From contig NZ_CP094473.1 in the NCBI RefSeq assembly GCF_023347535.1, positions 1 to 64,000 on the forward strand: 64,000 nucleotides of DNA, given 5' to 3'. Of the stretch, positions 22,718 through 54,526 are shown in pieces. The DNA is from Faecalibacterium sp. HTF-F. GTDB taxonomy: Bacteria > Bacillota > Clostridia > Oscillospirales > Ruminococcaceae. Position 1 is the first letter of the stretch. Each line of letters begins with the position of its first letter. The position numbers and the translations under genes are program-made. The notes under the pieces were generated by a model that was not told the DNA's origin, ran no database searches, and worked only from the letters and a program-made list of their open reading frames with translations.

Positions 22718-22810
22718 TCAAAAAATGTTATCACAAAATCTTCCAAAAGATACCATTTCCTTTTTACAGTTTCTTCATAGCTTCTTAACGAATTGAATTG
22801 TGAAAGCTGT

Positions 22811-22940
22811 TATACTTTTGCCATGGGAAACGGGGCCGCAACCGTTTCCCGTGTAACATGATTCCTCCTCACACCAAGGCAATATCCAAACAAAACACCC
22901 TTTTTCGTGCGCCGCAACACGGAAGAGGGTGTTTTGTTTT
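22811..22940 (+). ncRNA. Candidate small RNA with anti-Shine-Dalgarno linker, copy 1
   Basis: The extended -10 TGT-TATACT (22808-22816) places +1 near 22823, at the foot of stem 1, GGGAAACGG / CCGTTTCCC (22825-22850), whose loop contains GGGCCGCAAC. A single-stranded linker follows with ATTCCTCCTCACACC (22861-22875), complementary to Shine-Dalgarno sequences. Then comes a terminator stem CAAAACACCCT / AGGGTGTTTTG (22891-22936) with an inner CGTG/CACG helix and a loop ending CCGCAA. A second copy at 29381-29513 keeps the loops and linker but has different stem sequences that still pair. An ATG in the linker opens a short frame without a ribosome-binding site, so an RNA role is preferred. Confidence 0.7.
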
Positions 22941-23112
22941 GGCAAAAAACGATCTTCCGATGCCGCCGCAGTGCTTTGGCATTCTCAGCGGTAATTTTTA
23001 TCCTTGCAGTTCGGCAAAGGCTGCGGGCTTTGCCGGACTGCCTTTTCACGCGAAAGAAAAATAAGATCTGTGTTTTTATAAAATAAAATTCCTGTAAATC
23101 CATGGTTTAGGG

Positions 23113-28740: not shown

Positions 28741-29331
28741 TTAGAAAATCCTGCTGGAAGGGGCATCCTGCAGGCCGGTGTAGGTAAAGACAGCCGTTTT
28801 GCCGGACTTCTTAAGGGTAAGGGTCATCTGGCCCGTATAGAGGCTCTGGAACGAAGAATTGGAAATGGTGCCAAGATCAATAAAAAGGATCACGGTCTTC
28901 TGTGAAGCATTGCCCACGGAAAGCGAGGTTTTGAATACATAATCCGTTTTATCGCTGTTCAGGCCCTTGTAGCCAAGCCCCACGACGGTGCCCTTGCTGC
29001 CGCCGGTGTGCGCAAACGTTAAATCGGAAGTGTTGATCGTAATAGAATCGGTGCTGCTCATAGTGCTGACAGCAAAAGCAGCGTAGAGGTAATTGTGGCG
29101 CTCACCGCCCTCGTAGATGGAGCTGGAAGTCCACTGGTCAAAGCGGCCGATATTGGCGGTAAAGGCGCCAAAGTCAACAACCTTGTCGCTATCAACGGCG
29201 GCGGCCACCAAGCCATCTGGGGTAGAAGCATACGCACCGCCGCAGCCTGCCAGCATACCGCTTGCGGCAACGGCCAGTGCAGCAGCACCGGTGGTCTTTA
29301 AAAAGGTACGGCGGGTAATAAGCTCAGACAT
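28741..29331 (-). CDS. Exported lipoprotein with twin-arginine-type signal
   Basis: A 196-residue protein starting at ATG 29331 after AAGGAGAGGTTTCGTT. The signal reads ITRRTFLKTTG, a twin-arginine-like motif, then a hydrophobic stretch and lipobox LAGC. The mature domain is a beta-rich sandwich rich in Thr/Ser, with a DxFAFTAxIG-type opening and FTYTGLQDAP at the end. It looks like immunoglobulin-like or DUF4352-like extracellular domains, but no family can be assigned. Candidate small RNA copy 2 lies directly upstream on the same strand, so its expression may be linked to that RNA. Confidence 0.75.
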   Translation of the reverse strand: MSELITRRTFLKTTGAAALAVAASGMLAGCGGAYASTPDGLVAAAVDSDKVVDFGAFTANIGRFDQWTSSSIYEGGERHNYLYAAFAVSTMSSTDSITINTSDLTFAHTGGSKGTVVGLGYKGLNSDKTDYVFKTSLSVGNASQKTVILFIDLGTISNSSFQSLYTGQMTLTLKKSGKTAVFTYTGLQDAPSSRIF

Positions 29332-29380
29332 AACGAAACCTCTCCTTTTCACGCAGAAAATCATAAAATACAAAAGCGGA

Positions 29381-29513
29381 TAAAAACAAAGACTCCCCCC
29401 AGCGCTTGCGGTACACCGGAGGGAATCTCTGTTTGGGGTATTGCTTTGGTGTGAGGAGGAATCATGTGTAGAGACGCGGTTGCGGCCCCGCGTGCTCTAC
29501 AATTGATAGTATA
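29381..29513 (-). ncRNA. Candidate small RNA with anti-Shine-Dalgarno linker, copy 2
   Basis: Minus strand: -10 TATACT (29513-29508), with ATGACT 17 bases upstream as -35. Stem 1 is GTAGAG..ACGCG / CGCGT..CTCTAC (29500-29468) around loop GGGCCGCAAC. The linker carries ATTCCTCCTCACACCAAAGC. A 14-bp terminator stem lies between 29431-29418 and 29400-29387, with a CCGCAA loop and a TTTGTTTTTA tail. Loops and linker match copy 1, while both stems have different sequences that still pair. It sits 50 bases upstream of the Tat lipoprotein ATG, so it could instead be a leader. Confidence 0.7.
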
Positions 29514-29666
29514 CCCCATTTTCCTCAAAAAGTCATTACATTTCTGTGAAAAATCATCCCGTAATAAACTTTTCTTTAAAAACTCATCCGGCTTTGAAAA
29601 ACGACCAAACAGCGCACAATGCGCAAAGGCTCCCGTAGTTCCAGAATGCGGCAGACTGTCACTTTC

Positions 29667-29715: not shown

Positions 29716-30258
29716 TTATGCCTTTTCTACTTCGCCCACCACCAGCTCACCGGTCTCGGAGGAGTAGCTGCCGGTCACCTTCTGGTGGCCGCTCTTAAAG
29801 GTCAGCTCCACGGTGTGCACCAGCTGGAACCAGCTCTCATAAGCAGTGTCGCTGATGCGGTAGACCAGCACAAAGGTCTTTTCTTCGTTCGGCTGCAATT
29901 CGTAGTCCTTCTGGGTCCACCAGCTGTCGCCGCTGGCGTTGTCCGCAAAGCCAAAGTAGATGGGCGATGCAGCAGAATGGTCGATCTCAGCCGGGAAGTT
30001 GTCGGCGGTCAGGGTGACGGCACGGCTGCTGACGTTTTTCAGGGTGACAACCACCTTGACCACATGGATGGTGCCATATTCCTCGGTGCCAATGATCTCA
30101 CGGCCCGCCTTGCCGCTCACATAGCCAATGCCATTTACGGTGCCGGGAATTTCAACATCTTTGCCGCCGCCGCAGGCGGTCAGGGTGCCGGTGAGCCCTG
30201 CCGCAAGCAGTGCTGCGCCGGAAAGTTTAAGGAATGCGCGTCTTGAAAGATTTTCCAT
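29716..30258 (-). CDS. Exported lipoprotein with twin-arginine-type signal
   Basis: A 180-residue protein starting at ATG 30258, eight bases after AGGAGG. The signal has NLSRRAFLKLSG and lipobox LTAC followed by GGGKD. The mature domain resembles DUF4352/DUF5067-like beta-sandwiches of clostridial lipoproteins: VVKVVVTLKNVSSRAVTL is the typical strand pair, then a WW-containing loop and QPNEEKTFVLVYRI. Such domains are thought to bind ligands or partners outside the cell; no function is known here. It stands alone, between the gamma-carbonic anhydrase gene and the small-RNA locus. Confidence 0.78.
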   Translation of the reverse strand: MENLSRRAFLKLSGAALLAAGLTGTLTACGGGKDVEIPGTVNGIGYVSGKAGREIIGTEEYGTIHVVKVVVTLKNVSSRAVTLTADNFPAEIDHSAASPIYFGFADNASGDSWWTQKDYELQPNEEKTFVLVYRISDTAYESWFQLVHTVELTFKSGHQKVTGSYSSETGELVVGEVEKA

Positions 30259-30322
30259 GTTTTCTACCTCCTGCCCCAAAACAAGGGCTTTTTGTACAGT
30301 ATACCATGGCTAAAAACGGGGG

Positions 30323-54449: not shown

Positions 54450-54526
54450 GCGTTGGTAGCTCAGCTGGATAGAGTGACTGACTACGAATCAGTAGGCCGG
54501 GGGTTCGAGTCCCTTCCATCGCACCA
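54450..54526 (+). tRNA. tRNA-Arg (anticodon ACG)
   Basis: A full cloverleaf: D stem GCTC/GAGT, anticodon stem ACTGA/TCAGT around CTACGAA (anticodon ACG, read as ICG), five-base variable loop, T stem GGGGG/CCCTT around TTCGAGT, and encoded CCA. The acceptor stem GCGTTGG/CCATCGC has a T-T mismatch at the fourth pair. Confidence 0.95.

What the first reader, a model, noticed from the sequence alone, without database searches (positions are those of the whole stretch)
22808..22940. Two-copy candidate small-RNA family with compensatory stems and an anti-Shine-Dalgarno linker (copy 1)
This locus and 29381-29513 (opposite strand) share a plan: a TATACT -10; stem-loop 1 with identical loop GGGCCGCAAC; a linker containing ATTCCTCCTCACACCAA; and a terminator stem-loop with a CCGCAA loop. 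Stem 1 is GGGAAACGG/CCGTTTCCC here and GTAGAG..ACGCG/CGCGT..CTCTAC there; stem 2 also differs completely, yet all arms still pair. Constant loops with covarying stems imply selection on RNA structure. CCTCCTC is complementary to ribosome-binding sites, as in C-rich regulatory RNAs of Firmicutes. Both copies could encode a peptide starting MIPPHTKAI, but they lack a ribosome-binding site and a one-base indel breaks the shared frame.
Basis: partly seen in the sequence, partly recalled or inferred. Interest (0 to 1): 0.87.

Follow-up and report, generated by a model that had tools for sequence, protein, structure and literature searches.

The report
New small-RNA family in gut bacteria
Two near-twin stretches in this gut bacterium look like genes for a small regulatory RNA that is not in the standard RNA catalogue, is kept in many related gut bacteria with matching changes in its folded stem, and probably acts by covering the start sites of messenger RNAs.

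Summary
Confirmed and extended. Both copies fold far better than shuffles (z -7.4, -7.2). They belong to a family with 90 further copies on 86 fetched stretches, by record title nearly all Faecalibacterium, Gemmiger, Fournierella, Ruthenibacterium, Anaerofilum, Pygmaiobacter and unnamed relatives. Divergent homologues occur in another family of the order; a third copy lies elsewhere in this genome. All 10 stem-1 pairs show two-sided changes. No Rfam family fits. Neighbouring genes vary, so it is a free-standing gene, not a leader. New here: the promoters lack a TTGACA -35 and carry 11-nt direct repeats of the kind OmpR/PhoB-family regulators bind, and the linker is antisense to a complete translation start (AGGAGG-AAUC-AUG). 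Best reading: a sRNA switched on by a two-component system that pairs with ribosome-binding sites, working like Listeria LhrC or RsaE/RoxS but not a member of either. No transcript, target or regulator is shown; long-match searches found no convincing target, and the regulator is unresolved.

The parts
22763..22790 (+). Copy 1 promoter repeats TTTACA-N5-TTCATA-N5-TTAACG (11-nt period), candidate response-regulator box
   Evidence: A PWM trained on 71 homologues, window copies left out, scores 31.1 here, the best site in the window and five other stretches of this genome
22811..22816 (+). Copy 1 -10 element TATACT; no TTGACA -35
   Evidence: sequence; aligned promoters
22822..22853 (+). Copy 1 stem-loop 1, loop GGCCGCAA 22834-22841
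   Evidence: fold; covariation in the family
22854..22892 (+). Copy 1 linker: CAUGAUUCCUCCUCACACCAA, anti-SD CCUCCUC 22864-22870, then GGCAAUAUCC
22893..22942 (+). Copy 1 intrinsic terminator hairpin with CCGCAA in the loop, T-rich tail
29534..29550 (-). Copy 2 promoter: one good repeat unit TTCACA (29550-29545), next unit degenerate (GTAATG)
   Evidence: read
29508..29513 (-). Copy 2 -10 element TATACT
   Evidence: sequence
29467..29501 (-). Copy 2 stem-loop 1, loop GGCCGCAA 29487-29480
29433..29466 (-). Copy 2 linker: CAUGAUUCCUCCUCACACCAA, CCUCCUC 29459-29453, then AGCAAUACCCC
29378..29432 (-). Copy 2 intrinsic terminator hairpin with CCGCAA in the loop, T-rich tail

Best explanation
The two loci are paralogous genes for a free-standing, about 120-nt trans-acting small RNA. 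Shown by sequence: a -10 element just upstream, a 5' stem-loop with a fixed loop (A/G)GCCGCAA and covarying arms, a constant, mostly unpaired C-rich linker, an intrinsic terminator that often repeats CCGCAA in its loop, and wide conservation. Inferred: an OmpR/PhoB-family response regulator binds the 11-nt direct repeats in place of a -35 and switches the RNA on. Inferred: the linker pairs with translation starts, CCUCCUC with the Shine-Dalgarno sequence and the CAU before it with the AUG, and blocks initiation. The GCCGCAA loops would be a second conserved contact, for RNA or protein. My first choice of regulator is the response regulator-histidine kinase pair at G000:C1 about 311.5-313.8 kb (about 0.4); PhoP/PhoB is next (about 0.3).
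For: Family: 92 copies counted, window copies included. Structure: 73 of 74 distinct stem-1 segments fold with z < -1.5 against mononucleotide shuffles, mean -3.3; covariation. CCGCAA in the 75 nt after the linker in 68 of 92, against 2.5% of shuffles; a T-run in 86 of 92. Free-standing: the nearest downstream ORF and its orientation vary. Promoter: TTNAYA-like hexamers 11 nt apart in 73 of 86 distinct upstream regions, while all other spacings from 6 to 16 together make 4; the three-unit score is reached by under 5% of 50 resampled sequences in 81 of 86; the homologues L182, L189, L174, L192, found without the exact linker, score 13-15 of 15 and the third copy 12. Regulator hint: the 12 genomes of this family with the exact-linker form that were searched each hold a 75-100% identical copy of the 313-kb response regulator, own genome included (G024, G046 and G057 were not searched). 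TTCACA lies within 220 nt upstream of 9 of these 12, of 0 of 13 paralogous regulators and of 0 of 14 pstS matches. Linker antisense reads GAGGAGGAATCATG; in f24 homologues GAGGAGGGTAGAACATG.
Against: No transcript data. Linker identity is partly built in by the exact-match search. In this genome TGTGAGGAGG-N2-9-ATG occurs only on the strand opposite the two sRNA copies; with up to 2 mismatches to TGAGGAGGAATCATG only two places besides the three copies turned up, and the one at an rpoD-like start did not recur in G081. So any pairing is short. The regulator was picked after seeing four of this genome's regulators. Repeat spacing in its orthologues' promoters is irregular: 9, 10 and 11 nt in 3, 1 and 1 of 12; 3 of 12 lack TTCACA; 3 of 13 paralogue promoters also reach p at or below 0.03 with the sRNA matrix. 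G039 and the four f24 genomes searched, which have the RNA, have only 46-49% identical best matches to this regulator. Copy 2 keeps one good repeat unit. Some pstS promoters carry similar repeats, so PhoP is not excluded.
Confidence: 0.6

Rival explanations
1. The same sRNA, but with its box bound by the phosphate-starvation regulator PhoP/PhoB, making it a Pho-regulon sRNA.
For: Unit 1 of the box is mostly TTTACA, which lies upstream of 8 of 14 pstS matches. This genome's pstS has a 13-of-15 three-unit box, reached by 0 of 200 resampled sequences, and 5 of 14 pstS loci have p at or below 0.03. With the sRNA matrix 4 of 15 pstS regions score 9.5 or more.
Against: TTCACA, the commonest form of unit 2, is upstream of 0 of 14 pstS matches. 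With the sRNA matrix only 3 of 15 pstS regions reach p at or below 0.02, against 5 of 97 control genes.
Confidence: 0.25
2. A cis-acting leader or riboswitch/attenuator for the downstream gene.
For: Terminator plus conserved loop and linker; copy 2 ends about 50 nt before the likely ATG (29331) of a lipoprotein-like ORF on the same strand.
Against: Downstream ORFs differ and often face the other way (the ORF caller is crude and partly picks antisense ORFs); copy 1 ends about 365 nt before the listed start (23305) of the next long same-strand ORF; the folds show no competing anti-terminator.
Confidence: 0.06
3. A small protein gene: either the sense MIPPHTK peptide or an antisense ORF that starts at the ATG after AGGAGG on the other strand.
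For: The antisense strand has a good SD and ATG at every exact-match copy; the sense ATG is in all 74 aligned copies.
Against: The antisense frame relative to the loop splits 47, 27 and 18 among 92. Covarying stems explain the changes.
Confidence: 0.04
4. The RNA mainly binds a protein through its repeated GCCGCAA/CCGCAA loops, and the C-rich linker is secondary.
For: The loop is nearly invariant in stem 1, and CCGCAA recurs in 68 of 92 terminator regions.
Against: In the other 24 of 92 the region has only CCGCA (13), CGCA (1) or neither (10, one cut off by a contig end). The linker is at least as conserved. No partner protein is known.
Confidence: 0.15

Closest known systems
LhrC family, Listeria monocytogenes (PMC4132741; abstract start, passages)
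   Same: Multicopy; 5' stem-loop, single-stranded stretch and terminator loop; C-rich contact sites; binds a G-rich sequence upstream of a start codon; depends on a two-component system (LisRK).
   Different: The UCCC motif is absent from our linker (it has UCCUC and ACCCC); no Rfam match; another bacterial order; our loops carry GCCGCAA; target and regulator here are only inferred.
RsaE/RoxS of Staphylococcus and Bacillus (PMC4409812 and others, search listing only)
   Same: Firmicute trans-acting sRNA with C-rich regions; pairing with ribosome-binding sites is the usual mode.
   Different: No Rfam match in the window or at E up to 1 in seven loci; regulator and architecture differ as far as seen.
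Candidate structured RNAs of human microbiomes (PMC8040213, passages)
   Same: Survey with 3161 candidates that could contain this RNA.

Membership tests
Any Rfam 15 family | Covariance-model match | tested here: not met
   Window at gathering thresholds: only a tRNA at 54450. Thirteen loci at permissive E-values: a tRNA and four sub-threshold hits, of which three lie off the element; the fourth (L022, ncr1175, E 0.48, 27 of 60 bits) is on the strand opposite the terminator.
LhrC-like sRNA | UCCC motifs in loop A, linker and terminator loop | tested here: not met
   Read: the linker has CCUCCUC and ACCCC, the loops have CCGCAA
LhrC-like sRNA | Several copies per genome | tested here: met
   Two close copies and a divergent third in this genome
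LhrC-like sRNA | Expression needs a two-component system | tested here: inconclusive
   Repeat boxes fit an OmpR-family regulator; no binding or expression data
C-rich SD-pairing sRNA (general kind) | Unpaired C-rich segment complementary to SD | tested here: met
   CCUCCUC is unpaired in the copy 2 fold; three of its bases are in a weak 6-pair interaction in copy 1
C-rich SD-pairing sRNA (general kind) | Pairs with mRNA starts in vivo | not testable with these tools
   No convincing long-match target found by pattern
RsaE/RoxS | Match to the family model | tested here: not met
   No such match
Riboswitch or attenuator leader | Constant downstream gene or function | tested here: not met

The most novel reading that the evidence does not exclude
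A new, anciently conserved sRNA family of the order that includes Faecalibacterium, whose conserved core is antisense to a whole idealised translation start (SD, 4-7-nt spacer, AUG), and which is the RNA arm of a dedicated two-component system (regulator and kinase followed by a beta-N-acetylhexosaminidase-like gene, so perhaps envelope-sensing), with repeated GCCGCAA loops as a separate protein or RNA contact.
Probability: 0.3. Interest if true: 0.75.

Novelty: new member of a known kind. Interest (0 to 1): 0.6.

Why it matters
Faecalibacterium and its relatives are abundant human gut commensals. The papers listed by my searches (15 of 20, 15 of 7,699, 6 of 103 and 8 of 358 hits shown) include none evidently about a trans-acting sRNA of these bacteria. 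A covariation-supported family with a defined promoter box is a concrete, testable entry into RNA-based and two-component regulation there.

Tried and rejected
Leader/riboswitch: downstream genes vary. Sense and antisense small proteins: frame and length vary. Phage origin: the 12 viral-collection stretches with ATTCCTCCTCACACC show no GCCGCAA loop before it. WalR box: its recalled consensus TGTWAH-N5-TGTWAH needs A/T where unit 2 has C in 62 of 71 (consensus from memory). Long-complementarity targets: TGTGAGGAGG-N2-9-ATG, with the sRNA genes' own antisense taken out, has 28 hits in 14 sRNA-bearing genomes and 9 in 10 others; SD usage was not controlled for, and I found no recurring target gene among the ORFs read (loci were fetched for only part of the hits). 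A first covariance model (R1) had no pairs: RNAalifold found no structure on the MAFFT alignment of 74 copies, which I put down to misaligned stems of differing length. R2 came from 13 copies of one stem register. Those 13 were chosen by their pairing and A3 was fitted to R2, so pair counts lean towards the structure; the controls and the single-sequence folds answer this in part. The first pstS scan left minus-strand loci unturned and was redone. The box matrix used the 71 of 74 distinct boxes left after dropping the two window copies and one box with a weak match. My first idea, PhoP control, became a rival.

Full report
OBSERVATION. Both copies are present as described and fold into two hairpins with a linker between (z -7.39 and -7.19, 0 of 200 shuffles as good). 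In the 2.78-Mb genome the 21-nt core is found only there with up to 3 mismatches; a covariance model then found a third, divergent copy at G000:C1:557015-557084, E 1.4e-4, with loop AGCCGCAA, ACATGATTCCTCCTTTACAAACC and a following hairpin with TTCCGCAG.

FAMILY. An exact scan for ATTCCTCCTCACACCAA in one genome per species gave 103 stretches. Reading them, 17 lack the loop and come mostly from other groups: chance matches, dropped. The other 86 stretches hold 90 copies; with the two window copies, 92. By title they are Faecalibacterium, Gemmiger, Subdoligranulum, Fournierella, Ruthenibacterium, Anaerofilum, Pygmaiobacter and unnamed Oscillospiraceae, Ruminococcaceae or Clostridia. Model R2 matched 21 of 119 genomes of the family at E up to 0.01; by reading I accept 16 and regard 5 (G022, G038, G051, G064, G115) as chance. 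In the order 13 of 197 matched; I accept 5 (G000, G081, G141, G207, G283); six others look unrelated by eye (G197 and G237 despite E near 1e-5), and G168, G177 and a second match in G197 were not read. A pattern from the divergent form hit 3 of 291 genomes of the class, G141, G207 and G178, all family f24. So the RNA is old within the order but patchy outside one clade.

STRUCTURE. 73 of 74 distinct stem-1 segments fold with z < -1.5. On the R2-fitted alignment (80 matches, 75 distinct rows, among them two weak secondary hits in L022 and L006) 10 of 10 pairs have two-sided changes (7 of 500 shuffles also reach 10) and 91.7% of cells pair; covariation is 0.687 against 0.221 shuffled and at most 0.161 for slid structures. 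The linker's identity is inflated by the exact search; L174, L181, L182, L189 and L192, found otherwise, keep CCUCC and a CAU 4 to 7 nt before it. After the linker: T-run in 86 of 92; CCGCAA in 68, only CCGCA in 13, CGCA in 1, none in 10.

NOT A LEADER, NOT A PROTEIN. Genes that I read as yfcE, rsmI, birA, holB and yaaT recur nearby (holB also by Pfam), but the next downstream ORF is not constant.

PARALOGUES. In L003, L038, L080, L104 and the ATCC 27768 record (L054, L014) two copies converge, as in the window; in the F. hattorii record (L056, L021) both lie on one strand. One type ends (G/A)GCAAUAUCC, the other AGCAAUACCCC. Several promoters of the second type, window copy 2 among them, keep mainly one repeat unit, so regulation may have diverged.

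PROMOTER. Upstream of the -10 lie TTTACA, TTCACA and TTMAYA units at -48, -37 and -26. Hexamer pairs 11 nt apart occur in 73 of 86 distinct regions. PhoB-family regulators bind tandem 11-nt direct repeats (PMC4415409, passages). The PhoB model finds nine regulators over nearly its full length in this genome, none over its cut-off. I read upstream of four; the one at 313 kb had the strongest box (13 of 15; matrix 15.3). With its 11 orthologues (75-82% identical), 9 of 12 reach matrix score 9.5 and 9 of 12 (not the same nine) reach p at or below 0.03; of 13 paralogues 0 reach 9.5, but 3 reach p at or below 0.03. Of 97 control genes 2 reach 9.5 and 5 reach p at or below 0.02. TTCACA: 9 of 12, against 0 of 13 paralogues and 0 of 14 pstS. 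Against: irregular spacing; L240, L245 and L250 are not significant; in f24 and G039 the best match to the regulator is 46-49% identical, and only L254 of these five has a significant box. Thirty family genomes without a match have at best 46-55% identical homologues (18 of 30 at E up to 1e-60), which may just follow phylogeny. A kinase and a beta-N-acetylhexosaminidase-like gene (207.3 bits, cut-off 207) follow the regulator; envelope sensing is inference.

MECHANISM. The antisense of the core, GAGGAGGAAUCAUG, is itself a full translation start, so the RNA could cover SD and AUG at once. No strong target turned up: in G000 the long pattern gives only the strands opposite the two copies, and of two extra near-matches one starts an rpoD-like ORF (my reading of the protein) and the other has ACG for ATG; neither recurred in G081. 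Short C-rich pairing, as in LhrC, remains the likely mode.

NOVELTY. No Rfam match. Paper searches (most lists capped) showed no evident description; the supplements of PMC8040213 could not be read. It is a new RNA family as far as tested, of the known kind of C-rich regulatory sRNAs.

Noticed in passing
L181 / L230; G000:C1:557015-557084 (+): Third, divergent copy of the RNA, about 95 nt after a long permease-like ORF (L230 3646-6921).
   Followed up: partly
L269 3309-6792 (-); G000:C1 about 310.3-313.8 kb: Response regulator, histidine kinase and beta-N-acetylhexosaminidase-like gene in a row, with TTCACA repeats before the regulator.
   Followed up: partly
window 28741-29373, 29716-30279 (-); L127 7602-8216 (-): Several short lipoprotein-like ORFs with twin-arginine-like starts (RRTFLK, RRAFLK) in this genome; two flank copy 2.
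   Followed up: no
L113: Viral-collection contig with two copies, 58 nt apart, of a repeat holding ATTCCTCCTCACACC; no sign of the RNA.
   Followed up: no
G000:C1:1188994-1189008 (+), L228: An rpoD-like ORF starts GGAGCAGGAATCATG, with 10 nt in a row complementary to the linker; may be chance.
   Followed up: partly
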